Part shown: one piece after another, positions 1,492 to 50,482 of the stretch
Layout of the letters: each line of letters opens with the position of its first letter
Position numbering within the stretch: the first letter of the stretch is position 1
NCBI GenBank assembly: GCA_032622095.1
Contig: CP136062.1
Location: forward strand, 56,992,420 to 57,056,419
Length of the DNA: 64,000 nucleotides
Direction of reading: 5' to 3'
DNA from: Siphonodentalium dalli
Lineage: Eukaryota > Mollusca > Scaphopoda > Gadilida > Siphonodentaliidae
Program-made: the position numbers and the translations under genes
The notes under the pieces: model-generated
The model's input: the letters and a program-made list of their open reading frames with translations, nothing else
The model's database searches: none
What the model was told of the DNA's origin: nothing

Positions 1492-2119
1492 ATTAGTTAG
1501 GGAGCCCGCATATGTTCTATTTACACTTTTGCGTACAAAAGGTTTGACCCCCTAAATTTGGTACCAATAATGGAGCATTCTGAAAAACCGATTTCTTAAG
1601 TTGCGCATTCCTGGGGTTTAGGGGCCGCTGAACCCCAAAAAGTGCCAAAAATCACTTCTATTTACACTTCCGCGTACATCGATGAATTTTGGTTTGATGA
1701 TACTCCTAAGTGTACTGATTAAGAAAATACAACTTAAGAAAGGGATTTCCCTGGGGTCTTCAGATAAGAAAGGGGGTCCCATGCTGAACCCCAAAACGTG
1801 ATTTTTCATTTTATTTTACACTTTCGCGCACATCCATAATTTTTGGTCTCAAAGTACTTTGATATATACTAATTATAAAAACACAGCTTAAGAAGCAACT
1901 TTTCCTGGGGTTTTAAGATAAGAAGGGGGTCATCGGGTCACCCATCAAAACGTTAAAAAAATCACTTTTATTTACATGATTGCATTCGTCCAACGTGTGT
2001 GTATGTGCGTACACTCCCGGAACGTTGCACTATTACAACCAATACATCCCTAAATCGATACGATCAACTTAAGAAATATATATTCATGTCGATTTCTGAT
2101 AAGAACGAGACTTGTTACA

Positions 2120-2135
2120 CCCCCCCCCCCCCCCC
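2120..2135 (+). repeat. C16 homopolymer in the left arm of FB-1
   Basis: Sixteen consecutive C residues. The matching point in the right arm (near 6780) has only a short G-rich run, so the tract expanded after the arms diverged. Confidence 0.9.
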
Positions 2136-3419
2136 ACAACCAGATCCATTTTCTAGAACTATAAGTGAGCCAGTTTTATGAAAATAAAGCGGGAAAATAT
2201 AGTAAAATGTATACAAATGTCTATATTTTCGAGTTAAGACATAATGACACTTTTTTGGGCCAAAATTGAAACTCACCATCAAATATGGCCGCCAAAATGG
2301 CCGCCGGAAGTTGAAAATATGACATTTTTTCACAAATATCTTCTAGATCAATTCATGCTGTTTGGAACTGGTTGAGTAATGCAACTTTATTTTGTGTTTT
2401 GTATATTAACTGATCATTGGAGCAATTCAATATGCAATCATTGGGGTCCTAACCGGCTAACCCCTTCCGATCCCTCAAAAATTCGTTTGTACAGAATGCG
2501 TATAACATTTCACAATTGGGATTCTAGTCATATTTCAACAAGAAATGAACAGAACTTTGTAATGTAAGTGAGGCATATCATTACCTATGAATATTCCTAA
2601 TCACTGGAACCAAAATTCTTACTTTGGCTCAAAATGGCTGCCAATATGGCCGGCCAAAATATGGAAAATGGTAAATATTACACCAGCGTGTCCTGCAATC
2701 GCTTACAAGTTGTGTTGATGTATAAAATTGGCTATTCTGCATTCTATACATTGAATAGTAACATGTATGATGCACCATTGTTAATTGTTACTATTTTCAC
2801 CACTGACACCGTCAAAAATATTGGACTTTTCTCTCACAAACTTGACAAAAATATTGGCAAAAATTCAGTTTTCAGGTTTGGACCATTTTTTCAGGTAAAA
2901 TATAACTATCTTTGGATTGAAAGGTGTTTATTGTTTTGGTCTATCTTAGATGTGTCACACTACGGTGTTTATAGACCAAATTGCTCAAGATGGCTTCCAA
3001 AATGGCAACCAAATTTGTAAAATGCTAATTTTTTACATATATCCCGAACATTCTCTGCATTATCCGAAAAGGTAGCAAATTGTGACTCACTTGGTTATTA
3101 TACGTGTTAGTTAATTAAATGACAACTACATGTTCTATTCCCAGTTGTCCCAGTTCCGTATGGGGCATGACAAATTCATTTTAATCTTAAAGTATGTAAT
3201 TTTGCCGAGAACCTCTTTTGTGATTTTGGCCATATTTATTTAAAGGAAATGGGCAGAACTTTGAGACAGAACAGAGATGGACCATAATCTTAGGCTATTC
3301 TGGTCCATTATGATAAAAACAATGTCAACAGGATACAGTGTGGATGCCAATATCGTAGCCAGGGAGTTACTCTGTGATCATATGTGAGGTGAATATATAT
3401 ACAGGGAGTTATTGTATGT

Positions 3420-5680
3420 CATGACTGATATGAGTAGGTATACAATGCGTGACTATATGGTTATGAGTGGGTTGTCCACGGTAAGATGCATCTAGGTATA
3501 CAGGGAGAGGTCATGGTCAGGTGTAGCGTGAATCGGTATGCATGTAGTGACTGTATGGTATATGATTGTGTATATCCAGTACGGGTGCACCCGGTGTGCC
3601 TGTATGGTCATTGGTGTGGTGTAAGGATATAGCTACATGTTCATCTATGTGTTGATTATGTATATATGGAGTTACTGTAAGGTCATGGGTGGGCTGTACA
3701 TGTGTTGTCTGTATGATCATGGATGGGGTGTGTGGATAAATAGGTAGTGATTTTATGGTTACGGGTAATGTGTATAGGTATACATGGAATGACTGTACGG
3801 TCATGATTGAATATGAATACCTGGAGTAAGCTGGGTGGACATTATCGAGCGTGCGGGTACATATGTAGTGTCCTTGTGGTAACGGTGGGATGTATATTTA
3901 TATATCTCGTGGATGTATTATCATTGGTGGGTGTATAGGGCTTAGCTGTATTATCATGGATGGCGTGTATTATTATACAGTGAATTGCTGAATTGTCATG
4001 TGTGAGGTGTATATGCAAGTATGGATTGTTTGAGTGGTCGTATGTGCGGGTTTTTTCGTATGTGAGGTTTACATGTATACCTGGTCTATGGTCTATGGTG
4101 AGCTGCATATGTATATCGAGTGGTTATATGACTATGTGTGTCGAATAGGTATAGCGGTAGTGACTGTATGGTTAATGATGATATGAGTACATGTAGGTAT
4201 ACAAGTAGTGACTGTATGATCATAAATGTAATGAACATATATACAGGGGCTGACAGGCGTATGAGTATACATGTACTAGTACCTGGTGTTTCTGTTTGGT
4301 GACTCGTGTCGGTATCGTCATGTGTAGGTAAAACCAGTACACACACGTGTTGCTTTATTGTCATGGGCGAGGGATATGTGTATATAGCGAGTGGCTATAT
4401 GGCCATGGATGAGGTGCATATGCATACATGGAATGAATATACTGACATGGCTGGGTATATTAGTATATGTTGAGTGGCTATTCGGCTATGGTGTGACAAA
4501 TAGGGATATATGGATTGACACGGCCAATGTTGAGGTGAATATGTATACAAGAATTGACCATGATCGTGTATGAATGTTTTGAATAGGTACACACGGGGTG
4601 ACTATATGGCCATAGGTCAGGTGAAGGAATATACCAGGTAACATGGGTGAAGGTATGTGTATGAAGCGAGTGGCTATATGGCCATTGGTGATGTGCATAT
4701 GTATACCGGAGTGACTTTATGGTCATTGTTGTGGTGTTGATGTATATATTGATTGACTATTTGACCATGCGTTTGGAGAATAGGTATACAGGGGATTACA
4801 TTATGGCCAATGGTGAGATGAATGGGTATACAAGGAGTGACTATATGGTTATGGGTCATGTTTAGGAGTATACCCGGTGTGCCTGCATTGTGACGCGTGG
4901 CTGTATGGTCATCCGTGGTCATGGGTCAGGTGTACATGAATACAGTGAGTCACTATGTTGTTATGTCTGTGGTGTTTATGTATATATGTAATGACTGTGA
5001 TAATGGGTGGCTATCGCTTTCCACGATATGACATGACCTCACTATTGATTAACATATCCTTGAGTTATTGTGGAAAGCGATAGCCACCCAATGTACACAT
5101 GTACAACCCACCATTACCCCAGTCACTCCATATGTACATAAGCACCACACAAATGACAACATAGTCACCCACTTCATACATGTACTAGTACACCTGGTCA
5201 TACAGCCATACTTGGTTATACCCGTACATACCACAAATGACAATACAGCCACGGGTCGCCATGCATGAACACCAGGTATACACCTACACCCGACACATGA
5301 CCATATAGTCACTCTATGTATACATATTCACTACATTCACGATCATACAGTCACTCATTGTATACGTATTCACCTCACCATGGACCATACAGCCAATACA
5401 TGTATACCTATTCACCATACCATGACCATAGCGTCAATCCAGATATACATATGCACATCACCAATGGTGACCCTTCAAGATATACCAATATCCACACATA
5501 CGACTACTCATAAGATCCATACTTGCCATACTCATGATAACACATCCACAACATATATAAATATACGTCCCACCGTTACCAACAGGGCATTCCCTATATA
5601 CCCACACATCATTCATGACCATACAATAACTCCCTGTATTATCTATTACCTATTATCCTCATCTATGATCATAGAGTAAC
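3420..5680. repeat. Central degenerate ~60-bp tandem array of FB-1
   Basis: Left of about 5020 the units repeat phrases such as GTGACTGTATGGTCATG and GAGGTGTATATG at roughly 60-bp spacing. Right of about 5070 the same phrases appear reverse-complemented (CATGACCATA, AGTCACTC). Several short reading frames cross the array, but they are low-complexity products of the repeat. Confidence 0.8.
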
Positions 5681-7413
5681 TCCCTGGCTGCCATCTTGGC
5701 TTCCACCCTGTATCCAGTTTATCATAATGGACCAGAATACCCACATATCATGGTTCATCTCAGTTCCGTCTCAAAGTTCTGCCCATTTCCTTTCAATAAT
5801 ATGGCCAGAATCACAAAAGAGGTTCTCCGCAAAATTCCATACTGCAACTTCAAAATGAATTTGTCATGCCCCATACGGAACTGGGACAAACATAATAGAA
5901 CGTAGTTGTCAGTTAATTACATTGTAACTAACACGTACAATAACCAAGTGAGTCACAATTTGCCACCTTTTTTCGTATAACGCAGAGAATAATGTTCGGG
6001 ATATGTTAACTTTTAACTTTTTACAAGTTTGGTTGCCATTTTGGAAGCCATCTTGAGCAATTTAGTCTATAAACACCGTAGTGTGACACATTTAAGATAG
6101 ACCAAAACAATAAACACCTTTCAATACAAAGATTGATACATTTTACTTGAACAAATGGTCGAACCCTGAAAAGTGAATTTTTGCCGATATTTATGTCAAG
6201 TTTGTGAGAGAAAAATCCAATATTTCTGGTGATGTCAGTGATGACAATAGTAACAATGATCCATGGTGCATCAGACATGTTAGTATGCAATGTATAGAAA
6301 ACAGATTAGCCAAGTGTGTACATCAACCACAACTTGTAAGCGATTGCAAGACACCTTGGGGCAATATTTACCATTTTCCATATTTTGGCGGCCATTTTCG
6401 CAGCCATTTTGAGCCAAGGTAAGATTTGTGGTTCCAGAGATTTGGAATATTTATAGGTAACGATATGCCTCACTTACCCCAATAATTGCATATTTAATTG
6501 CTCCAATGATCAGTTAATATACAAAACACAAAACAAAGTTGCATTACTCAACCAGTACCAAACAGCATGAATTGATCTAGAAGATATTTGTGAAAAAATG
6601 TCATATTTTCAACTTCCGGAGGCCATCTTGGATGGTGAGTTTCAATTTTGGCCCAAAAAATGTATCATTATGTCCTAGCTTCACGAAAATATATACATTT
6701 GTATACATTTTACTAGATTTTCCCGCTATAATTTTCATAAAACTGGCTCACTTATAGTTCTAGAAAATGGATCGGGTTGTGGGGGTGGTTACAAGTCTCG
6801 TTCTTATCAGAAAACGACATGAATATATATTTCTTAAGTTGATCGTATCGATTTAGGGATGTATTGGTTGTAATAGTGCAACGTTCCAGGGGTGTGCGCA
6901 CATACACACACGTTGGACGAATGCAATGATGTAAATAAAAGTGATTTTTTACGTTTTGATGGGTGACCCGATGACCCCCTTCTTATCTTAAAACCCCAGG
7001 AAAAGTTGCTTCTTAAGTTATGTTTTTATAATTAGTATATATCAAAGTACTTTGAGACCAAAACTTATGGATGTACGCGAAAGTGTAAACAAAAGTGAAA
7101 AATCACGTTTTGGGGTTCAGCATGGGACCCCCTTTCTTATCTGAAAACCCCAGGAAAATCCCTTTCTTAAGTTGTGTTTTCTTAATCAGTACACTTAGGA
7201 GTATCATCAAACCAAAATTCATCGATGTACGCGGAAGTGTAAATAGAAGTGATTTTTGGCACTTTTTGGGGTTCAGCGGCCCCTAAACCCTAAAAATGCG
7301 CAACTTAAGAAATCGGGTTTTAAGAATGTTCCATTATTGGTACCAACTTTAGGGGGTCAAACCTTTTGTACGCAAAAGTGTAAATAGAACATATGCGGGC
7401 TCCCCAACTATAT

Positions 7414-19479: not shown

Positions 19480-21314
19480 TATTTGCGAATGTCTGTCTGT
19501 CTGTCTGTGTTCTATAGAAATTCACAGTGGACAACAAAGATGGCACAAAAAGGGTCTAATAGGGGTAACTTTTTACGAGAAAGATAATGGCGAGGGTTAG
19601 AATTTTGTAAAGTGACGCAGTTGTTGTCAGGGACAGAAAAGGGAGAGGGGCAGAAAAAAAATTTGTCGCCGATTGCCACCAAACTTATACATAATCATCC
19701 CCATAATATGAGGAATCTAATGGTGTAGTTTAAATTTGTCAAGATCGCGCCGTTCGCGCCAGGGATGCTCGGAAGAGGAGAGGGGCACCAAAATTGATCA
19801 AAAATAATTATAGCGTCGAATTCCACCAAATTGATGCACATTCTTCTGAGATATTCTCCATGATACACGGAATCTTATTGTATGATTTAAAAACGCCAAA
19901 TTGGTGTCGTTGGTGTGAGATATTTGGGGGGGGGGCGGTTGGTGGGTACTAAATCTGATACAAATTGGTTTAGTCGCCGATTGCCACGAAACTTATAGAA
20001 ATTCATCCCCATGGTGTGATGTGTCTAATGGCATGGCTTAAAGCTGACAAAAGGGGCGTCATCCGAGTCAGGGGTGCACTGAAAGGGAGAGGTGCACCAA
20101 AATTGATACACAATATGTTTAGCGCCAATTTCCACCAAATTGATAAACATTCTTATCCATGATATGAGGAATCTAATCGTGTGATTTTAAAGACGTCATA
20201 TTGGTGCTGCTTTGGTTAGAGCTGGGGTTGGGTGGGGTGGGCACTAAATTTGATAAAAAATTGTGTAGTCGCGGATTAGCACCAAACTTACAAATAATAA
20301 TCTCCATGATATCAGGAGTCTAATTGTGTGGCTTAAAGATGTCAAAAGTGGGGCCATTCGAGTCAGGGTTGCCTAGAAGGTGAGAGGGACACAAACTTTA
20401 ATAAACAATATGTTTAGGGCCGATTTCCACCTGGTTGATACATTATATTCTTCTCCGTGATACGATTAATCGAATCGTGTGGTTTATATGCGCCAAATTG
20501 GTGCCTTTCTGTGTAAGAGATATGCAATGGTGGCCCTAAATTTGGTACGAATTTGTATACTCGCCAGTTTTCATAAATTTTATATATATTCATCTATATA
20601 CTGAGTCTAAGTGTGTGGTTTAATGATGTCAAAAATGGCGCCGCTTGAGTCCGAAATAGGGACGGGAGGGTCACCAAAAACTTATAAAAATATGTTTAGT
20701 GCCAATTACCATCAAACTCATACCCGCTATTCTCAAATAATACAATGAATCAAATATTCGCGAATATCTGTGAGTGTTCTATATATAACGTTAAGGGTAC
20801 AATCGAGATGGCACCAAGACTCTCTACCAGGGGTAACTGTTTACGATTAAGATAATGGTGTGGGTTGAAATTTTCTAAAGTGACGTTGTTGGTGTCAAGG
20901 GAGGGGCTATTGTTAGCGCAGATTTCGACCAAATTGATATAGTATTCTTCTCCGTGATACGAGGAATATAAACGTGTGATTTAAAGACGCGAAATTGGTG
21001 CCGTTCGGGTGGGTGAGAGACGGGGGGGGTAATAACTATGATAAGAATTTGTTTAGTTGCCGATTACCACCAAACTTATATATAATCATCTCCATTATAT
21101 AATGCATGCATGAGTCTAATAGACGTAGTCTATATATGACAAACGTGGCGCGGTTCAAGTCATACATGAGGGGAGTTGCACTACAGTTGATACAAATATA
21201 TTTAGCACTTATTCCACCAAATTCATGCACGTTCTTCTCTAATGATAAAATGAATTAAATCACATTTGGGGTCGTTTTGGGTCATTGATGGCGAGAGGAG
21301 ATTCACTAGCATTT
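19480..21314 (+). mobile_element. Helitron-like element, 5' part with ~150-bp satellite array
   Basis: It begins with a TGTC microsatellite and GTGTTCTATAGAAATTCAC. A tandem array of ~150-bp monomers follows, anchored by CCACCAAA-CTTATAC or CCACCAAATTGAT at about 19678, 19823, 19984, 20134, 20280, 20426 and 20574. The monomers alternate between two types, so the higher-order period is ~300 bp. Monomer boundaries carry phrases such as GGAGAGGGGCACCAAAATTG. The element is cut at 21314 by FB-3 and resumes at 26887. Tandem core units beside a tetranucleotide run resemble the Pearl/Helentron group of bivalve molluscs; that placement is inference. Confidence 0.65.
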
Positions 21315-24300
21315 TAGTAGAGGCTCTTATGTCCATTTTTTGGCTCCCGTGTGCATTTTGTGAAGAAATATAGCCACTATGCTCATGATGTTGCTTGATA
21401 TCTCGGGCACCAGAAAACAAATGTTAGACACCTGGGGGTCGCGACTGGGTGGATTTATGACGTCATCAAAATGGCCGCCATCCAAAATTTCAGAGTAGGC
21501 ACTGAATCAGTTTTGATTAATAGCTAGTAGTGAATTTATGGTAGAAAATATAATATTTCTATACTATTGTGATACTATGATAACAGGCTTCACTTTGACA
21601 GAAAAATTGACCACATTTAACAAAGATGGCCGCCAAAATGGCGACCGAAGTTCGGGAAAATGATGAATTTTCACACATTTCTCTTAAAATATTCACGGTT
21701 GTTTGAAATCTGTGGCTAATTGCAACTTAATTTTAAAAACATTTGAATGCCTAACCATTTGAACATGATAATATGTCATAATTTGGGTCTTATTCCTACA
21801 AAATGTCGTCAAAATGTGAATTCATAAATATGCTATGAACTTTTACCAAATATATCGATTTTGTAATTCGAGCCAAGTGTTCGCCAGAAAATAGCTGAAT
21901 TTGATGACAATCATTTGCAACAAGTTTAAACATATATATTGCCATATAATTACAACCAAAAAAGTGCATCTGTATTCAAGATGGCGACCAAAATGGTTGC
22001 CAAAATTGATAAATCACTCAAATTTGTCAAATTTTCTTTGATATCACTCCTAATGTGCGATTTAGTGAATATAGGTGAATATATTTGCTCCGTGTTGGCG
22101 TAATAACATGGAGATATGAAACAATATGAATAGTTTGTGAACAATGGCTGTTTATACTCAAGAATTCGAGAGAATGAAACGACGAAAATGAGATGAAATC
22201 ATCAAAATGGCAACCATGAACAATTTCAGAGTTGGCATTGAGTCTGGGAGGAAAATTTAGATAGTGAAATGATTATGTTTCGCGACAAATAATAACATTG
22301 GATCACACTTCCTCTTGATGGTGCAATTTGGACCTCAAAATCCAAGATGGCTACCAAAACGGCGACCAAAATTTTAATAATTGATGATTTTTCACACTCG
22401 CCTCTTAAATTATTCACAGCGGTTTGAAATCGGTGGCTACTAGCAACCTTATTTTTGAATAAATTATACTATCTAATCATTCGACAACCATGAAACGTTA
22501 GATTAACATATTATTATTCATATGAATCTAAATTCAGGATGGTGACTCAGATGGTTACCAAAATAGAGAAATCATCCAAATTTGCTAGTTTTCATTGATA
22601 ACGCTCCTAAGGTGGGTTTCAGTGACTACTGGTAAACACATTTGTTCCCCTGTTGACGAAAGTGCCACGAATGCTGATATAATCTGATACAATATGAATA
22701 TTTTGCGAACAGTAGCTGCTTATATCCGAGATTTCATGAGAATGGAAACAGAAATCATGAAAAGTAGATAAATTCATCTGATGTTGACCTATTTGAAAAT
22801 ATCCAAATCTGAATATATGCTGATTACATCCATCATTACATGTACATCGGAAATGTCCTGATTGGGTGACTCCACTGGAGAAAAATCCCTACCTCAACAA
22901 TAAGGCTGTCGGTATTGAGCAATACTTTAATTACTTCCCCTTGATATCGCCCCCATTATGGGGTTTGGATAATAATTTTTCACTTGACTCCTGTATTGCT
23001 CATGTAATGCCATCATACTAAGTCAATTCTACCGAAATTCAGCTGCTTGCGGAAATTAATTGAATGGACATCACACAATGCAGTACCCAAAAACAGTAGC
23101 AGCATATAATGCGTCGACATTACAGACATCTTCCATGTTAACAAGCTTAATAATTAGTGTATACTAAGTCCAAATATAAGAATAGGAGCTAATATTTGTG
23201 TGATTCGTTCTTATTAATATACATGTACGAAAACACAGGGTATACTTTTGTGAAACTGAGAAAATTTACAATTGCTCGTCCTTGAATAACATCTAGTTCA
23301 AATTGTGTGTGCATCAGGGGATTATATGACAGTAATTGCTTTGTCGCAGACTACCAAACGAGAGCGTTCAGATGTGAACTGCTGTGGAGCTCTGGACAGC
23401 TCATATGTCAACTCACTGACTCCACACCCAAGATTTGCGAAAGCGTGGCTGATTTTGATCGAGCTAGGATAGGAAGATAGCCTCATATAATGAGTTCAAT
23501 TGGTATACATGTGTATTTGGGTTCCACAGAGATAGCTTTCTGAACATCGCATATACTGCAAGTTCGTTCCGTGTATGATCCCCATCTTCCTGTGTGGAAC
23601 TTATGCACTCATCAAGTTTATATTAGATACACCGATGTCATATTTGTCACATGTGTTATCGAAGTTCTTTCATTGCCTGCGTTATGCGGTCTCATCAAAA
23701 TGTCATACAAGAAACAAATTCACACCAAATGTTCTCTTTAAATGCCTGAATTTCTGTAATTGTATCGGCTATCGGCAATGTTCCAGATACAATTGATAAT
23801 AATTTCTCGCACCAATGCACAGTTCGACTTGGCTGTAGAGGGAATTCAACTCACCGACATGTTGGGGTACATGTATTATTATTGGGTGGAAAGTTTGTAG
23901 TATTCTTTCCAGATGTTTTATACAGGAACATTTGATATCCCACTACAATGAAATCAGGTCTGCAGAAAACTCAGGTCGTTAAACGTTGAAATCTGATACC
24001 TTCCTGAGCAATAGTTGAAGTCAATTTCTGTTATGGACTCTTCAAATGGCTAACAATCCACAATCTTCTCTCAATTCAAGCATAACATTGTTATCTATTA
24101 CTTCCAACTTTTGCGCATTATCTATATTCCAAGCTTGTAATTGGCCTACTTGTGGATCCGACTATTATGGTTGTACGGTTTGCCAGTAAATTCTATGACT
24201 ACATTTATTCGATGGACAATTAAAGGATTTCGTTCGAGATTGCGGGGTTTCTGTGATTCGAAGATCTTTACTTTCTGTGAACTAACAGTTGATGTATAAT

Positions 24301-26886
24301 GCTAATGAATGTCCCCATGTGGATGTTTTGCAAGAAATCTTAATAAACGTTCCATTAAATGATCTTGATGACCCGTCACTCTATTCATTACTTCGATGCA
24401 CCATCATATGGCATGGACCAAAGATGAGCTTCTGGTGTTTCGATGAGGTATTTCATCACTAAATATCCAGGCACTAGCCATAGGCATTTTGATTTCACGA
24501 CACTGATGTTTTGACATATTCTAAAATAAACTGACAGGCATTAACTCGGTTATGTGCACAGTTCTGTTAGACTACATCGAAGTAAATATGCAATGTATCT
24601 GCTATGAGGTCTGCGGCCGTATTGAAATTTATTTATGAAATCTGTATTATGGACTCTCCATTTCACAACCGAAGCAAACATACTATATGGAGTCTCTGAT
24701 ATGCAGTCGGAAAGTTTTGTGGTGAGCTCTGTTAGCTTGCGAGATGAGTTTGTAATTCAACTGTAGTTGCTGGTGTGAGTTGGTTGTAGGTAGACTACCA
24801 TCAATGTGACCATCTATTGGACGAAGTAACAGGAATGGTACATGTGCTGACTCACGTCTTGAGTAGTGTGACAATGTCTCAACTATTCAAACGAATTTCG
24901 GGTGATGAAACACAGATATGCCAAAAACAAGAAACTGAACAACGAAATCTCCCCTTATTGTATCTTATTAGACACAACTGTTTCATAATTAGATACGAAC
25001 TAATGTTTGCACTAACATGTAATGCCTGTGTATTTCTAACTTGAGCAATTATATTTCCCGGTGGCAGTATGATAGCCATGCAACTTCGACTTCGATGAAG
25101 TCAAGGTGTGATATTGTTCCTGAATCTTCTAAATTTTTGTGGCCGGGCGAAATCAACTTGGTCAACAATTCATCAAGAATTGGCAACGAATAAATAAAAT
25201 GACTGCAGGGAATCTTTTGCCTTCGAGTACCCGTTAAGCTCTTATAATGATACAGTCAGCACATATCCGGTTTGACTTCCTTCCCAGGAAACGGGCAGGA
25301 TCGTTTAAATTATATTGGGCAATTTCATGTTAGATTTCTAAGAGTCCATTCTGTTATATTCTCGATTATAAACAAACTATGTTTGGTCAAACATAGTCAC
25401 AATATACCTTAACGTGATAGTATCTAATTTAGATTGGGCGAATATATCCACCTCCTTTGCTAAATGCCGTTTGAAAATATAAACATTTATCACATTTTAT
25501 AACTTTGAGTTTTGGCGGCCATTCTGGCGACCATCTTGGGTCAAATAGATCAATGTCGAGTGTAATTGAATGACACTAACGATATTTAAAACTGTGTACA
25601 CTTTTGTTTATTTTATTATGCGTATTTGTGTCCAATGTCTAGAACCTCGAGAAGCAAGTTTATTTGTGAAATTACATAGCGAATTATTTAATTTGCATTT
25701 TTCGGAGTATGGACAACAATTAGACACAAATTACAGCATAATATGTTTTCCAAAGTACTTGGTGTCATAACTGATAAAAGCAAAGACAAGTCATACTCGC
25801 CACAGTTTACAAATAACCGAAAATGATGTAAGGGGCATGTGTAACAAAATTCAACACATTTCTATATTTCGGTCGCCATTTTGACAGCCATCTTGTTTTT
25901 TTTATCAATCTTGAACTTTCAAAAGGAAGCTTGGTGCAATTTTATCATTTCTGTGTTAAATTTGCTTCCTCACTCAGTGCCCATTCTGCAATTTTGTGTG
26001 GCTGCCATGAAGATGATTTGACTTAATTTTCGTGCTATAATTCTGTTGAATTATCGGGTATAAGCAGCTATATGGTTCACCAAATTTACAAATTATTCCA
26101 TAAGTCCATGGATTTCCGCGAAAAAGTAACACATATTCACATATATTTACTTTTCCCCAACACATGAGTGATATCAATAAAAATTGGACATATTTTGGTG
26201 ATTTCTCCATTTGGCCGCCATCTTGGCCGCCATCTTAAACGAAAATGCACTATCTTCAGTGTAACTATATGGCAATTCACATATTAAAAACATTTTTATA
26301 TTATCTTCATCAAATTCAGTTATTTTCTGTTCAACTCTTGGCTAGAACCACATATTTGAATTTTGGTTAACTTTCATAGCACATTTTTGAATTTGCATTT
26401 TAAAGATAGCTGGAAGGAATGAGATGCGAAATATGACATATTATGTTGTAGAAATGGTTGGATACTAGAATTTATTCAAATTTAGGTCTTTATTCGTTAC
26501 AAATTTCAAACATCGGTAAATGATTCAAGAGGAAAGTGTGAAAAATCATAAATTTTTCGAATTTCGGTCGCCATTTTGGCGGCCATCTTGGTTTATGGCG
26601 GCCAATTTTTCTGCCAAATGGAAGTATGGTGTATTAGTTTCACGTCAGTGGTGAGATAATCAAATTTCTATAATAAATTCACAAGTAGATATTAATCAAA
26701 CTGACTCAGTGCATACTGTGAAATTGTGTACGGCGGCCATCTTGATGACGTCATAAATCCACCCAGTCGCGACCCCAAGGTGTCTAACATTTGTTTTCTG
26801 GTGCCTGAGATATCAAGCAACGTCATTGGTATAGTCGCTATATTTCTTCACAAAGTGCACACGGGAGTACATAAGAGCCTCTACTA
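21315..26886. mobile_element. Foldback element FB-3 (~5.6 kb)
   Basis: The ends are TAGTAGAGGCTCTTATGT at 21315 and its complement ending at 26886. The inverted arms (about 21315-22790 and 25440-26886) align throughout, for example the GGTCGCGACTGGGTGGATTT region near 21440 against 26760. Each arm repeats a module containing GATGGCCGCCAAAATGG followed by TTTTCACAC. The centre (22790-25440) is single-copy in the window. The element interrupts a Helitron-like copy; the uninterrupted paralogous sequence is at about 33030-33080. Flanks suggest only a short AT-rich duplication. No transposase was recognised. Confidence 0.85.
22790..25440. other. Unique centre of FB-3, no recognised gene
   Basis: About 2.65 kb between the arms. 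Short frames (23575-23796 plus, 24817-25044 plus, 24683-24874 minus) show no identifiable domain. Autonomous relatives would be expected to carry a transposase here. A decayed one cannot be excluded, but I see no supporting motif. Confidence 0.5.
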
Positions 26887-27962
26887 TTTATAAGATTGTT
26901 CAATTCGCCGATATAAAGTAAAATATAGTTATCTCCCAGGCCATCTCCATGTCGTTCTAAGGCGTTTCTGGCATTCCAATTTCACAATCTTGACGAATGG
27001 TGACCGAATTAAGTCACTTAAACAATTATATCTTCTCAAATATCATATTTATATGGGGACGGAAATCAGGGCAGTATATTTATATCAATCTATTTAAGAG
27101 ATACATATATTCATGCAAACTGAGGGACATTGAATCGTCAGAGGATTGCATTTTATAATGGCTCATGTATATATTATAACACGATTGAGTCTGTCCCATT
27201 CAATATATTTTCCACAACAAAAGTTTCAGTTGCCAAGAGATATGGATATGTAGAGCAGACCTGTTCAAAAATAGTGGTAACAGTGTGCAGTCAAATGTGG
27301 TTACTTCTGAGATAAAGGAAAACGCAGTCCGTAGCACATGACTGTTCAGGATCCTCCAAAATGACATATGACAAGGGTATATCTGCCCGATACAGAGGAT
27401 TTCGTTCATTTTTTAGAACAGACTCATCGCCTAACATAAGCAACTCAAAATCTCGCTGTGTCTGGCACAATGAAGCTTCTATACTTGCATAACATCATTT
27501 CTTTTAAACTCAAAATTATTAGCCAGTATATAGGACCAGAACAGAGGGGCACCTGACCATATCTTTAAAACATCTCTATCGTCATGAAGATATGATAAAC
27601 TAGACTGATTGGTTGATTGGTTGATTGATACATATCTATGTAAAACCCAATTGTCGTCTTTTATTTTTTCGAACTAATGTATTTATGATGTTCATGTTTC
27701 ATGATGTAACGTCTGAAGTATCGCAGTTTTAAATAAATAAATACTTCTTTATTGGTGGGACGGATTAAACGCGATAAACAAAATGATAATCGCTCCGACC
27801 TAACAAGGTGAGCCACTACTTATATTCCATGTAAGAATAATGTTTTGTGATGCCATTTGGATATACAATTTATGAGAATACGTGTAACACGTTGAGAGCA
27901 AGAGTATTCACCAACTATCAACAGAGGGTTTCACATCACTTTAACCTGAGCAACGCCGGGTA
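26887..27962 (+). mobile_element. Helitron-like element, 3' part (continuation across FB-3)
   Basis: The sequence resumes directly after FB-3 with TTGTTCAATTCGCCGATA and ATCTCCCAGGCCATCTCC, matching the unsplit paralog at 32960-33040 (inverted). It continues through a ~500-bp module (to about 27480), a variable segment, then a ~240-bp terminal block (27730-27962). That block ends AACGCCGGGTAACCCTGCTA. The same end at 34905-34924 is followed by G, giving CTAG, with GGGTAACCC as a short near-terminal hairpin. Such an end fits Helitron 3' termini, but no Rep/helicase is present. Confidence 0.65.
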
Positions 27963-28140
27963 ACCCTGCTATATATATATAGTACTTAATAAAAGTGATC
28001 TCACCTATATATGGGATTCTCAGCCTGTTGGTGGTGGTGAATACCTTGCTCGATATGTTCAACAGTCGTTAAAGGGTCAATACTTGCAATAATATAGAAC
28101 GAAACTTTAGCCCAGAGCTCAAAATGTACTCTATATAAAC

Positions 28141-28417
28141 ATTTTATAAAGTACATGGCATAGAGAAATATCGTTTAGAACCGCCGCCAAAATTCAGATC
28201 ATACATGATCAAATTGAGAACTAGAAATAATCGGCTCCCTATTGAAATTTCCAGTTGCAAAAACTCAGAAGTTCCTTGTTCACGTTGCCAACTGTGTGGT
28301 GAGGATACACCGGATAACGAATACTATTATCTGTTCATATGCTACGAGTTTTTGTCCTTCCGAAGAACCTATCTAAAGACATACTTTCAAAGTAATCCAA
28401 CTTATGAAAAACTTTAA
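28141..28417 (+). pseudogene. LINE ORF2 C-terminal fragment
   Basis: In one frame from about 28141 the translation has a Cys-rich tail typical of the C-terminus of jockey/CR1-like non-LTR retrotransposon proteins: IEKYRLEPPPKFRS, LRTRNNRLPIE, then CSRCQLCGEDTPDNEYYYLFIC, which I read as C-x2-C-x2-C ... H/Y-x3-C. No reverse transcriptase precedes it, so it is 5'-truncated, the usual outcome of LINE insertion. It ends at a stop near 28415. It sits between two Helitron-like copies. It may be the same family as the LINE at 49.2 kb, but the two fragments do not overlap. Confidence 0.7.
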
Positions 28418-28870
28418 ATTCCCTTTAATGACGGAAATAAAACAAAACATGTTGGAATGAAGCGCATCGGAAATAGTTACCAAAGCAGCCATTTAAATTG
28501 GTTTAATATTGAATCTGCATGCTTGCCCTCCTGTACGTAAACATAGTACCAGTGCAGCTTTCCCAGCTAAGTGTGTATGTAATTATATATCCGTTTGTTA
28601 TCACTTCGGTTTTGTTATCTTTAGTTGTGTGAGTTTTCCTATTTTATTTATCTCAATTATTTTAAAGTATAGTTGACATTATGTATGATAATATAAATAT
28701 TCCACATCTTAGTGGGCGGGGACGTGGTTGGAATTGACGTTTGTTTGTAATTTTAAATTATATCAACACATGAACATCATAAACACATTAGTTGTCAAAA
28801 ATAAAAGACGACAATTATATGTTTCACATAGAGGTGTACATGTATAAATCAATCTGGCCTGTTAGACTAA

Positions 28871-28990
28871 GATGTTTAGGACGCCTGGTTATCATATATA
28901 CATGAAGATACATATGTTTTAGGACGCCTGGTTATAATATATACATGAAGATACATATGTTTTAGGACGCCGGGTTATCATATTTATCTC
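28871..28990 (+). repeat. 43-bp tandem repeat, about 2.7 copies
   Basis: The unit contains TTTAGGACGCCTGGTTAT and ATACATGAAGATACATATG and restarts every 43 bp (28878, 28921, 28964). It lies at the edge of an inverted Helitron-like copy. Confidence 0.9.
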
Positions 28991-30640
28991 AGTAGAAACT
29001 ATATTGACTGCACATTGTGACCACTATTTTTGAACAGGCCTTCTATACATTTCTCTTTCTCTTGAGAAATTGTGTCCTTTTTTGTGGAAAATAACTTGAA
29101 TGGGACAGACTAACTTGTTTTGTAATACATGAGCCACTCTAACATGCCATCCTCTGATGGTTGAAGGTCCCTAATTTTGAAAGTATTATGTATCTCTTAA
29201 ATTGAATGATAAATACAATTCTACGTATCTGTTTTTGCTAGCTAACTGATGACCTAATGTCCTGATTCCTGTCCCCATAAGAATATGACAATAGAAGATA
29301 GAATTGTTGGAGTTACTTAATTCGGTCACCATTTGTCGAGGTTGTGAAATTTTAACGCCAAAAGCTCACCAGAACGAATCATAGAGATGAATATACATAA
29401 CTTTGGTGGATATCGGCATTTAAACCATTCGTATCAATGTTATTGCCCCTCATCTGCGTTCCTGGCCCAAAACGATACCATATGTTACATTTTAACCCAT
29501 CCTCGTATCGTTGGAGAAGCACGTGCATTTGGTGGAAATTATGTCAAAACATATTTGTATCAGCTTCAAACAAAATGGGACCCCTCCCCTCCACGCTCAT
29601 GACTCGAACGGCGCCACTGTTGACATATTTAAACCTGATATAACTTCAACCTGATATTAGACGCATGACGTCACTTTAGAAAAAAGTTAACCGGCACCAT
29701 TATCTTCCCCGTAAACAAATTATCAATGTTAGATCCCTTTGGTGCCATCTAAATGGTCGCCCGTGAAGTTATATAGAACACAGACACTCACAAATATATA
29801 TACATGTAGGCATCAAATGTGGCGTCTTTAACCCACACCATCTGATTCCTCGTATCATTGGAGAAGAACGTGTATGAATTTGGTGGAAATTGACGATAAC
29901 AAATGTTTAGCAGTTTTGGCGACCCTCCCGTCCCGGCCCTGTCTCTGACTCAAGCGGTGCCACTTTTGACACACTTAAACCACGCAATTAGACTCATTAT
30001 GAAGATGAATATATATAACATTGGTGGAAATCGGAGACTATACAAATTCGTAGAAAATTACTGCCCCCATTTCTCATTCAAACGGCACCCCTGACTCGAA
30101 TGACTTTTAACAGCTTTAAGCCACACACTTAGACTCCTGATTCATGGAGATGAGTATGTCTCAGTTTGGTGGTAATCGGTGACTAAACAAATTCTTATCA
30201 AACTCCATGGGGATAGCTCTCACTCAAACGGCACCAATTTGGCGTCTTTAAATCAAAGATTATAGGAGAAGAATGTGTATCAATTTTGTGAAAATCTGCG
30301 CTAAAAATAGTTTTATCAAGTGTTGTGCCTCTCTCCCCTTCCGTGCATCCTGACTCAAACGGTGGCACTTTTGACATATTTAAACCACACCATTAGATTC
30401 CTCATATCATGGAGATGATAATGTATAAAATTGGTGGGAATCGTCGCAAAGAGTTTTGCTGCCCCTCTTATTTTCTGCCCCTGACAACAACAGTGCCACT
30501 TTAGAAAATTCTAACCCGCACCATTATCTTCCTTGTAAAAAGTTACCACTGTTAGTCCCCTCTGGTACCATCTATATGGTCCCCCGTTGATTTCTATAGA
30601 CCACAGACAGACATTCGCAATTATATATATATATTCTAAT
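28991..30640 (-). mobile_element. Inverted Helitron-like copy (module D plus satellite)
   Basis: Reading on the minus strand, the ~150-bp satellite (about 30640-29390) is followed by the D module (29390-28991), matching 26940-27315. Microsatellite-side signatures (CTATAGACCACAGACAGAC) occur near 30595-30620 and again near 29770, so at least two starts are nested. The terminal block is missing. Confidence 0.6.
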
Positions 30641-32215: not shown

Positions 32216-33729
32216 GTACCAGGGTTACCCGGCGTTACTCAGGTTAAAGTGATGTGAAACCCTCTGCATGATGTGGACATTTGGTCGGAATAAAGAATAC
32301 TCTTGCTCAATACATGTGTTCTCATAAATTGTATGTCCAAATAGCATCACAAAACATGATTCTTACACATGGAATATAAGTAGTGGCCCACCATGTCGGA
32401 TCGGAGCGATTGCCATTTTGTTTATGTGGAAATAGCGGCTACGTATTATCAGTTTAAAAGAAATGTTGCTACGTACATGTATGTATATCCGCTACATCTG
32501 CCTCACAGAGAAAGAGTTTGAGTTGTTTGTTAGTCGTTGAGTCTGTTCTAAAAATGAAAGAAACTGACTCTGAGTTCTCTTTTATCTCAGAAGAAACTAT
32601 ATTTGACTGCACACTGTGCCCACTATTTTTGCACAATAACTCTTGACAAATTGTAACTTTTTTTGTGGAAACTATATTGAATGGGACAGGCTCAATTATG
32701 TTATAATATATACATGAGCCATTCGAATATGCAATCCTCTGACAGTTCAAGGTCCTTCATTTTGCAAGAATATAATTATCTCATAAATAGAATGATAACT
32801 ATACATTTAGTGCTTTCTTATATGTATCTGTTTTGCTAGTTCTTTATTATGAATGCCCTGATTACCATCCCCATATAAATATGAGAGTTGATAAGATATA
32901 ATTGTCCAAGTGACTTAATTCGCTCACCATTTGTCGAGATTGTGAAATTTAAACGCGAAAATCTCCTTAGAACGTTATGGAGATGGCCTGGGAGATGACG
33001 AAATATAGCTTTGGTGGATATCGGCAAATAGAACAATATTATCAATGCTTAGTGCATCTCCTCTCGCGATCCATGACCCAAAAGGCACCAAATGTGATTT
33101 AATTCATCGTATCATAAGAGAAGGATGAGTATGAATTTGGTGAAAATTAGTGCAAAAGATATTTGTATAAGCGTTGGTGCAACTCCCCTCCTCGTGCATG
33201 ACTTGAACGGCTGCATTTTTAACATATTTAAACCACGTCCATTAGACTCATGCTTGGATGATATAATGGAGATGATTATATATCAGTTTTGTGGTAATCG
33301 GTAACTAAACAAATTTTGCATCTTTAAATCACACGATTATATTCCTTTTATCACGGAGAAGAATAATACATAAATTTGTTGGAATTCTGCGCCAATAATA
33401 TTTATCAATTTATATATCAATTGTGGATGCCTCTCAGCCCGTTCGCCCCTGACACGAACGTCACCGTGTTGTGAAGGTGATTATGTATAAGAAATCTGCG
33501 ACAAAACTATTTCATCATTTTTTATGCCCCTCCCCTTTTCTGCACCTGACACCAACATCGTTACTTTAGAACAATTTAACCGCACCAATATCTTCCTCGT
33601 AAAAAGATACTCCTGCATGTTAGATCGCCTTGGTGTCATCTCGATTGTACCCCGTGAAGTTATATATAGAACACTGACATACAGATATTCGCAAATTTAT
33701 CTGGGCAACTACATGTGGCGTTTTTAAAA
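32216..33729 (-). mobile_element. Inverted Helitron-like copy, near complete and not split by FB-3
   Basis: Read on the minus strand: microsatellite-side start near 33700 (TATAGAACACTGACATAC on plus), satellite monomers (33700-33060), an unbroken satellite-to-D junction (about 33080-32960), D module (32960-32460) and terminal block (32460-32216) ending GCCGGGTAACCCTGG. The junction supplies the empty site for FB-3. Confidence 0.65.
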
Positions 33730-46184: not shown

Positions 46185-46536
46185 CAGAGAAAGTTATAAA
46201 GCTAAATTGCATTTTTTTTAAATATGACTATTTGGGGAATTTCCTGCAAACATTCTAAGAACTCTTTGGATCTCCGGTGTAATGTGTTTTCAGTTATTCT
46301 TTAGCTCAGTTTACTGTCAAAGTTATGGATTTTGTCGACGCCACGTGATAAGTAGGTAAGGATTTTAATAAAATATAACTTTGTGAATAGTAAGTGATTA
46401 TTACACGACCGGATTAAACTCCACATGACATGTAACTGGGGGACCATTGTTTAATATCTAACTACGTCTCAACACATCGTTTCACACGCCTCCAGAGCAG
46501 CATTGTGTTCATTATCGTGAGTCGTGTTATACTTAC

Positions 46537-46710
46537 TGGAGGAAATATGACCTTTAATCTCTTGGAACATGGCTGTGTTTTTTATGAAGATTAGTCGGCC
46601 GCACATCTGATTACAGGCCGACATAGCATCAACATGGTTCTTTGTATCAGTGCTGATATATGCACAGATCCCTGCGTCTGACAGCCACACCATGTTGCTC
46701 CCGGTGCAAT
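46537..46710 (-). CDS. Exon: first half of C-type lectin domain
   Basis: The acceptor TTATAG is at 46711-46712 and the strong donor GTAAGT follows 46537. The exon is 174 bp, 58 codons, phase 1 at both ends. The translation contains CTGSNMVW, AGICAYIS, AMSACNQMCGRLIFI and EIKGHIS, the N-terminal half of a C-type lectin domain (first Cys, the alpha-helix Cys, and the GG.L..I strand, here CGRLIFI). It joins in frame, across an AAT codon, to the terminal exon at 38384, giving a domain of ~125 residues, the normal length. Upstream it joins in phase to the TSP1 exon at 51.2 kb. Confidence 0.87.
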
Positions 46711-46909
46711 CTATAACACAATGGATGATACATGTGTATATTCGTTGTTGGTGGGATTGTGGGTTGTTCGTAAGATGATATGTGTACATTTTTAATGACC
46801 ATAACATATCATAACATTGTTCCTTTGAACAATTTTCCACATAACTAACACCAGAGTGTTGTTATGTTATCAAGTCAACAATTTGCTATCAATCTTCGCA
46901 ACGTATATA

Positions 46910-49244: not shown

Positions 49245-50482
49245 TGATTCTTGATAAACCGGTAGATCAGGCAGTAAGTCTCGATTCTCTATTTACGCAT
49301 TTGAACTCAGTGAACAATAATATCATGGATTTGTCTGAATACATTACGGATCTGATACAGGATCAGGGACACTGTGATGACCCGATAACTGATGCGGAAG
49401 TTTATAATGCTATACGACTATTGAAGAATAGTTAGGCCCCTGGCCATGACCGTGTTGTTAACGTGTATATTCAAGCTACAGCTCACATGATGGTACCACT
49501 TTAGACAAGTTTTTTCAATATCATACTAGATACCGGAATATACCCACATGAATAGGGCATGGGAATCATACTATCCCTCTATAAGAAACAGGGAGATCGT
49601 AATGATCGGAACTCTCATAGGGGAATCACATTGCTGAGTTCTTTGGGAAAATTATTCACAAGTATATTCAATAAAAGACTTTGTAATTACGCCCAAGAGA
49701 AGGGTTTGTTAAACGACAACCAAATCAGGTGTAGACAAGGACATTCAACAGTGGATGGCCTATTTATCTTACAAAGTATAATTGAGTTATATATTAAGAA
49801 TAATAAAAAGCTTGTTTGCACATTTGTCGATTTCCAGAAAGCCTTTGATTCTGTTTGGCGACAAGGTCTCTGGGTGAAATTATTAAGACAGGGAATAAAT
49901 GGCAAAGTTTTTAGAATTATTAGAAATATGTATGAATGCACAAAATCATGTGCTTCTCAAAATGGGCTGATATCAGAGTATTTTTTTTGGTGGTAATTTA
50001 TGTGTAAGACAGGACGAATGCTGTCCCCTTTTCTATTTTCGATGTAAATAAACAACTTGGAAATTTTTGTACACGACTGTGCTGTTGATGGTCTGAACTT
50101 ATTGCACGATATCTCTTTTGATAAACTAGGAGTCTACCTGATATTCATATGCCTGTTATATGCTGACGACACAGTGCTGTTCGCTGATGATTTCGTAAGA
50201 ATGCAACGTACTCTTGATGCCTTCGTGGATTTCGCCGAAGCATGGAAATTGAATGTTAACACTAGCTAAACCAAAGTTATGATTTTCAGCAGGGAGAGGG
50301 TAGATACAGACGTGGAATTCGGATTATGCGACCAAATACTCGATATCGTTGATGAATTTCCGTACCTTGGAGTTGAGTTGTTTTATACAGGGCGATTTCA
50401 TAACGTCCTAAAAGCTACCAAGGACACCGCCATGAAAGCTATGTATGGTTTGTTACGTAAAACCAGTAAGCTAGACTCCTAA
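49245..50482 (+). pseudogene. LINE reverse transcriptase pseudogene (jockey/CR1-like)
   Basis: One frame carries, in order: ITDAEVYNAIRLLKNS (fingers region), an APGHDRV segment, GIILSLYKKQGDRND then RGITLLSSLGKLFTSI, the palm FVDFQKAFDSVWRQGL, and LLYADDTVLFADD with the catalytic YADD. It continues through WKLNVNTS and FPYLGVEL and stops at 50480. In-frame stops occur at about 49433, 49502, 49553, 49994, 50045 and 50267. Near 49985 an extra base in a T run and a compensating loss before CCCC shift and restore the frame. The endonuclease and C-terminal tail are missing. It lies in the intron between the last TSP1 exon and the lectin exons, antisense to that gene. Confidence 0.9.

What the first reader, a model, noticed from the sequence alone, without database searches (positions are those of the whole stretch)
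21315..26886. FB-3 insertion proven by an empty paralogous site in the same window
Left of FB-3 the sequence reads GAGAGGAGATTCACTAGCAT; right of it TTGTTCAATTCGCCGATA. In the inverted copy at about 33000-33080 the same flanks are contiguous (minus strand GAGAGGAGATGCACTAAGCA then TTGTTCTATTTGCCGATA), separated by only a few bases. This defines a 5.57-kb unit with TAGTAGAGG ends and shows it entered a pre-existing Helitron-like copy.
Basis: seen in the sequence. Interest (0 to 1): 0.75.

Follow-up and report, generated by a model that had tools for sequence, protein, structure and literature searches.

The report
Non-coding long-inverted-repeat DNA transposon family
A 5.6-kb non-coding jumping gene with long mirror-image ends, one of many related copies in this genome, inserted into an older repeat, and an almost identical uninserted copy elsewhere shows exactly how it went in.

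Summary
The inverted paralog in the window joins the two flanks without the unit. A better empty site, 97.8-98.9% identical, lies at C2:46.99 Mb. It fixes the element at 21315-26886, TAGTAGAGG...CCTCTACTA, with a 3-bp target duplication (TTT). Of 18 insertions, 15 have an exact 3-bp duplication (shuffled mean 1.7). The genome holds 872+847 such ends against 151+177 in the reversed control. The copies read have no ORF over 135 aa, so the family looks non-autonomous, probably moved by an unidentified transposase. The ~1.1-kb arms are 73% alike, their outer ~170 bp 91%. They carry a mostly inward-pointing array of ATGGCNNCC sites (5-6/kb in one copy, 0.3/kb in its core and in the window outside). 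Some match the published YY1 site of ProtoRAG ends. A second family in the window (1494-7410) has different tips, the same kind of array and a TAT duplication. One tandem trimer shares single TA junctions inside one duplication. The host repeat is Helitron/Helentron-like only in part. Superfamily unassigned.

The parts
21315..26886 (+). FB-3 element, 5572 bp, TAGTAGAGG...CCTCTACTA
21312..21314 (+). target-site duplication, left copy (TTT)
26887..26889 (+). target-site duplication, right copy (TTT)
21315..22437 (+). left arm of the long inverted repeat (73% to the right arm)
25799..26886 (-). right arm of the long inverted repeat
21344..21513 (+). outer stretch of the left arm (91% to 26698-26867)
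26698..26867 (-). outer stretch of the right arm
22438..25798 (.). core: no ORF of 90 aa or more in the window copy; shorter inside than other copies
21471..22355 (+). left-arm array of ATGGCNNCC sites at 21471, 21626, 21638, 21981, 22207, 22347, all +; one - site at 21481 overlaps the first
25514..26740 (-). right-arm array, - strand 5' ends at 26740, 26586, 26574, 26233, 26221, 26008, 25879 and 25522 (the last lies inside of the aligned arm); one + site at 26595
20685..21314 (+). host repeat left of the insertion, 98.9% to the empty locus L045
26887..29853 (+). host repeat right of the insertion, 97.8% to L045
33043..33045 (-). equivalent uninserted position in the inverted paralog (reads TTG on the - strand)
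1494..7410 (+). FB-1, second family: TAGTT(A/G)GGGAGCCCGCATATG ends, TAT/TAT duplication, similar arm motif array

Best explanation
FB-3 is one copy of a non-autonomous DNA transposon family, about 5.8-5.9 kb when complete, with TAGTAGAGG...CCTCTACTA ends and 3-bp target duplications. An unidentified DDE-type transposase made elsewhere in the genome cuts at the TA tips (inferred) and inserts with a 3-bp stagger (shown by the duplications). The outer ~170 bp of both arms are probably the core recognition ends, because they are far more alike between the two arms than the rest. The rest of each arm is internally repeated and holds a mostly inward-pointing array of AAGATGGCNGCCAAAATGGCNGCC-type sites. 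These may bind a zinc-finger factor, host YY1-like or part of the transposase, that helps end recognition and pairing (inferred by analogy with ProtoRAG and Galileo). The confidence given is for the transposon and its 3-bp insertion; the role of the arrays is about even odds.
For: Empty site at 97.8-98.9% with exactly one TTT. 15 of 18 exact 3-bp duplications, 0 of 18 at 4 bp; shuffled mean 1.67, maximum 8 in 20,000 shuffles. 872+847 ends against 151+177. Copies about 92-97% alike, tandem units aside; L036 82-83%. Arms 91% alike in the outer 170 bp against 73% overall. ATGGCNNCC: 7 in the left and 9 in the right arm of the window copy (6 and 8 of them inward), shuffle maxima 2 and 3 of 500. 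The six left-arm sites are all present in 8 of 10 copies and five in the other 2; in L036 all but the outermost are shifted. CAAGATGGC: 2-4 per left arm, all +, and 3-4 per right arm, all -, in 8 of 8 copies; 2 of the 8 have one more in the core; 2 in the remaining 52.5 kb of the window. ProtoRAG ends carry the same 9-mer, bound by YY1, which aids end recognition (PMC7481187, passages). Galileo long ends carry several THAP sites (PMC3688188, abstract and discussion).
Against: No transposase or autonomous copy was found, so superfamily and chemistry are unknown; only 5 ORFs of one copy were run against Pfam. Between copies, the left-end bin is clearly the least diverged (1.7%), but the right-end bin (2.6%) is barely below two inner bins at 2.8%. 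The arrays could persist because the arms are repeated modules copied from one master; shared ancestry alone gives shared positions. No binding data exist, and in lancelet YY1 also represses ProtoRAG transcription. 3 of 18 insertions lack an exact duplication (two differ at one base, one at two). The TA-inside-element reading rests base by base on one close empty site plus the flank pairs.
Confidence: 0.85

Rival explanations
1. Tc1/mariner-type insertion in which the flanking TA is the 2-bp target duplication and the element starts GTAGAGG.
For: TA stands outside GTAGAGG in 39 of 39 distinct flanks (48 ends), but those loci were found with queries that include the TA. Tandem units share one TA.
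Against: The empty site has CACTAGCA-TTT-ATAAG, so the TA pair came with the element. The bases outside TA match as 3-bp pairs in 15 of 18.
Confidence: 0.03
2. The unit is not a transposon but arrived as a segmental duplication or recombination product.
For: The window copy has a 98.75% twin at C2:57.29 Mb, and the host region has three further copies about 97% alike on C2.
Against: 18 insertions with different flanks, 15 with exact 3-bp duplications, and about 1,700 end matches genome-wide, some 330 of which the reversed control would predict by chance. The twin only shows that this insertion was later copied.
Confidence: 0.02
3. The arm arrays are passive by-products: YY1-like words inherited in a repeated module without function.
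For: Arms are internally repeated (matches at offsets of about 718 and 565 bp in L031), so sites multiply with them. FB-1/FB-3 arm similarity outside the modules is weak: 102 against a shuffle maximum of 56 and a maximum of 83 among 31 other window stretches; BLAST finds only short matches.
Against: Orientation is nearly all inward in both arms; the sites recur in a second family with different tips; the core and the rest of the window have few.
Confidence: 0.4

Closest known systems
Galileo (P superfamily, foldback-like; PMC3688188, abstract and discussion)
   Same: Long internally repeated inverted ends with several binding sites inside the arms.
   Different: Different ends and duplication length (7 bp for Galileo, recalled); no THAP transposase was found or specifically searched for here.
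ProtoRAG (PMC7481187, passages)
   Same: Ends carry GCCATCTTG/CAAGATGGC, bound by YY1, which aids end recognition.
   Different: CACTATG element (TR1) in the ends, 5-bp duplications and encoded RAG1/2-like genes; one TR5 element per end against an array here.
Tetris / DAIBAM (PMC4079207, abstract)
   Same: Non-autonomous foldback-like element with tandem repeats in the arms; repeats that feed satellite arrays.
   Different: There the tips are shared between elements; FB-1 and FB-3 differ in tips and share the arm motif array.
IS3EU (as described in PMC10045372, passages)
   Same: TA..TA termini.
   Different: IS3EU usually has 6-bp duplications; here 3 bp.
AcademX (as described in PMC10045372, passages)
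   Same: 3- or 4-bp duplications.
   Different: Academ proteins were not searched for; its end sequences could not be read (PMC7165386 not held).

Membership tests
TIR DNA transposon (class II) | terminal inverted repeats plus fixed-length target duplication and a clean empty site | tested here: met
TIR DNA transposon (class II) | own transposase (autonomous copy) | tested here: inconclusive
   no ORF over 135 aa in the 10 copies scanned; a piggyBac-type ORF only in DNA without FB-3 homology; none in one long FB-1 copy; most of the family was not read
Tc1/mariner | 2-bp TA target duplication | tested here: not met
   TA belongs to the element; duplication is 3 bp
PIF/Harbinger | TWA 3-bp target (recalled) | tested here: not met
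   3 of the 15 exact duplications are TAA, none TTA; others include AGA, TCG, CAT, TGT
CACTA | CACT-type tips (recalled) | tested here: not met
   tips are TAGT; PF02992 has 78 matches in the genome, whose ends were not looked at
IS3EU | TA..TA termini | tested here: met
   definition from PMC10045372
IS3EU | usually 6-bp duplications | tested here: not met
   0 of 18 match at 4, 5 or 6 bp
AcademX | 3-4 bp duplications | tested here: met
   definition from PMC10045372
AcademX | Academ transposase and nuclease | not tested
   no model known to me in the libraries on hand
Zator | 3-bp duplications with ISAzo13-like transposase | tested here: inconclusive
   duplication length fits (PMC10045372); PF07592 rang nowhere, controls included; that this model stands for Zator is recalled
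Foldback (Drosophila FB type) | long arms with internal repeats | tested here: met
   1.1-kb arms with internal matches at offsets of about 718 and 565 bp
Foldback (Drosophila FB type) | 9-bp duplications (recalled) | tested here: not met
   3 bp
Helentron/HINE (host repeat only) | 3' palindrome and central tandem repeats, no target duplication | tested here: inconclusive
   shared 3' terminus with a weak hairpin, and internal repeats upstream; 5' end and insertion site not established; features from PMC7492417 (passages)

The most novel reading that the evidence does not exclude
FB-1 and FB-3 belong to one modular lineage in which interchangeable tips (the transposase-specific part) are attached to a shared recognition arm: a directional array of YY1-like sites that recruits a host zinc-finger factor to pair and cut the ends. 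The one tandem trimer, with units sharing a single TA and one TAA duplication round the whole array, records end-to-end joined intermediates that were re-inserted as a concatemer.
Probability: 0.2. Interest if true: 0.65.

Novelty: new variant of a known kind. Interest (0 to 1): 0.42.

Why it matters
The close empty site and 18 flank pairs give a firm definition of a large non-coding transposon family (TA tips, 3-bp duplication) that could not be assigned to a superfamily with the tools used. If the arm arrays are host-factor sites, this would extend the ProtoRAG-YY1 case to a different, high-copy element and suggest why some elements keep kilobase-long inverted ends.

Tried and rejected
I first read TA as a Tc1/mariner target duplication (my note); the empty site showed this was wrong. 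I looked for an autonomous copy in pairs with unusual spacing. The 18-kb pair (L039, middle 10 kb only) shows no FB-3 homology and carries a 602-aa piggyBac-type ORF (PF13843, E 1.1e-85). In the 20-kb pair (L040, middle 10 kb only) the first 1.3 kb is FB-3 and the rest is other DNA. A long FB-1 pair (L072, 8.9 of 10.9 kb) has rearranged FB-1 DNA and no ORF over 153 aa. PF14830, tried to place the host organism, and PF07592 rang nowhere, controls included, so both are uninformative. PF02992 matched 78 places; their ends were not examined. No Rfam match in L031 at gathering scores. Pfam on 5 ORFs of L031 gave nothing over cut-off. The organism was not identified. I saw no description of this family in the listings of six literature searches; Repbase was not available, so absence from print is not claimed. 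Passages of PMC9783078 and PMC10799480 were looked at and not used; a term search in PMC11602158 found nothing.
Full report
Observation. The 17-mer TAGTAGAGGCTCTTATG occurs twice in the window, in inverted orientation, at 21315 and 26886. The flanks joined without the unit align contiguously with the reverse complement of 32500-33600 (BLAST 83% on the left, 73% on the right). The two flanks also match a locus at C2:46990400-46994000 (L045) at 98.9% (20685-21314) and 97.8% (26886-29853), with no FB-3 match in it. Read base by base, the empty locus has CACTAGCA-TTT-ATAAG. The window has CACTAGCA-TTT-[TAGTAGAGG...CCTCTACTA]-TTT-ATAAG.

Generality. Twenty short flanks were fetched for ten further pairs and added to eight insertions already read in full. 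In 15 of 18 the three bases on each side are identical; in two they differ at one base and in one at two. None matches at four bases or more. Shuffling right flanks gives a mean of 1.67 and a maximum of 8 in 20,000. Genome-wide there are 872 forward and 847 reverse ends at up to two mismatches, against 151 and 177 for the reversed control. Of the 100 exact ends listed there, 70 form 35 inverted pairs under 10 kb, 27 of them 5.4-6.0 kb long; this count was made by eye and covers C1 and part of C2 only. The first-look candidates for the left 221 bp number 1396, of which 40 were scored.

Anatomy. Complete copies are mostly 5.8-5.9 kb; the window copy is shorter inside. The arms align over about 1.1 kb at 73%, but their outer 170 bp at 91%. 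Among six copies, divergence is 1.7% in the left-end 200-bp bin and 2.6% in the right-end bin. In 27 of the 28 other bins it is 2.8-6.9%, and 14.3% in one. The left end is thus clearly the most conserved, the right end only marginally so. Within L031, parts of an arm match each other at offsets of about 718 and 565 bp. The 10 copies scanned (three of them the tandem units) have no open frame over 135 aa. Five ORFs of L031 have no Pfam match over cut-off, and there is no Rfam match at gathering scores. The family is non-coding as far as read.

Arm arrays. ATGGCNNCC occurs at about 155, 309, 321, 662, 888 and 1028 in the left arm on the + strand and at mirrored places in the right arm on the - strand; all six left sites are present in 8 of 10 copies, five in L032 and L035, and in L036 all but the first are shifted. 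Density is 5-6 per kb in the arms of L031, 0.29 per kb in its core and 0.27 per kb in the window outside FB-3, which includes FB-1. In the window copy there are 7 and 9 sites in the two arms, 6 and 8 of them pointing inward; shuffles give means of about 0.1 and maxima of 2 and 3 in 500. The 9-mer CAAGATGGC is present 2-4 times per left arm and 3-4 times per right arm in all 8 copies counted, always inward; 2 of the 8 have one more in the core. The remaining 52.5 kb of the window, outside FB-1 and FB-3, has 2. That 9-mer is the reverse complement of GCCATCTTG, the TR5 element of ProtoRAG ends. In lancelet, YY1 binds it, improves end recognition and precise rejoining, and represses transcription of the element's genes (PMC7481187, passages read). 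Galileo carries several transposase THAP sites inside its long ends (PMC3688188, abstract and discussion). Function of the arrays here is an inference: sites in repeated modules are not independent.

A second family. FB-1 (1494-7410) has ends TAGTT(A/G)GGGAGCCCGCATATG and a TAT/TAT duplication. The genome has 574+630 such ends at up to one mismatch against 0 in the reversed control. Its arms carry a similar inward array and align with the FB-3 left arm at a score of 225 against a maximum of 52 in 60 shuffles. With the motif modules masked the score falls to 102, against a maximum of 56 in 60 shuffles and of 83 among 31 other window stretches. BLAST finds only short matches. Homology outside the modules is possible but weakly supported.

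Tandem trimer. At C2:55532561-55550182 three units stand head to tail, sharing single TA junctions, with one TAA/TAA duplication outside. Units 2 and 3 differ at 7 of 5882 places; unit 1 differs from them at 26 and 23 of 5846 plus 40 gap positions. Another copy, L033, differs from the units at 252-255 of about 5780. The palindromic junction was found nowhere else at up to two mismatches. It may record end-to-end joined intermediates, an in-place duplication, or an assembly error; this is open.

Host repeat. The host belongs to a very numerous repeat (7598 first-look candidates, 40 scored). Six dispersed copies were fetched. In five, pairwise alignments stop at a shared 3' terminus, GGGTAACCC or GGGTAACTC and then TKCTAGT; three places in the window have this stretch up to CTGSTA, one of them going on to CTAGT. 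The predicted hairpin there is weak. Internal repeats lie upstream. This is like Helentron-type elements with satellite-like repeats described in oyster (PMC7492417, passages), but the 5' end, insertion site and proteins were not tested. Besides the window, three copies of the wider host, about 97% alike, lie on C2. One, at 57.29 Mb, carries the same FB-3 insertion (98.75% over 7.4 kb), so the insertion was later duplicated; another, at 46.99 Mb, is the empty site. At the third (L044, 56.93 Mb) the sequence left of window position 28720 did not match in the piece fetched, so the insertion point could not be read there.

Mechanism. Shown: clean insertion, 3-bp duplication, TA inside the element, outer ends alike, mostly inward arm sites. 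Inferred: trans-mobilisation by a DDE-type transposase and a role for a zinc-finger factor. Superfamily stays open. TA..TA tips recall IS3EU, but its duplications are usually 6 bp; 3 bp fits AcademX (3-4) or Zator (3) by length alone (PMC10045372, passages). Tc1/mariner, Harbinger and CACTA fail on target or tips (the last two by recalled definitions).

Verdict. The thing is a large, non-coding long-inverted-repeat transposon family of a known general kind; its unusual part is the directional YY1-like array in the arms, also seen in a second family.

Noticed in passing
window 1494-7410: FB-1, a second long-inverted-repeat family with different tips, a similar arm motif array and a 3-bp duplication; 574+630 ends in the genome.
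   Followed up: partly
G000:C1:105577984-105578498: Fifteen FB-1 end 21-mers in a row, mostly 33 bases apart: a short satellite-like array built from a transposon tip.
   Followed up: no
L037+L038 (G000:C2:55532361-55550382): Tandem trimer of FB-3 elements sharing single TA junctions, with one TAA duplication outside.
   Followed up: partly
L019 (G000:C8:95554666-95566255): Apparently two FB-3 copies head to head, left end against left end, with a further left-end fragment between.
   Followed up: no
L013/L014 (G000:C4:135626162 and 135645304): Two FB-3 left ends about 19 kb apart in opposite orientation with the same 25 flanking bases, suggesting an inverted duplication.
   Followed up: no
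L039 7232-9037 (-): Open 602-aa piggyBac-type transposase ORF (PF13843, E 1.1e-85) in DNA between two widely spaced FB-3 ends.
   Followed up: partly
window 21287 and C2:57288594: The twin copy diverges abruptly 28 bases left of FB-3, while matching to the right for over 7 kb.
   Followed up: no
window 49559-49996 and 46469-46840: An open frame that looks like a LINE reverse-transcriptase fragment and one that looks like a C-type lectin exon (by eye; not searched).
   Followed up: no
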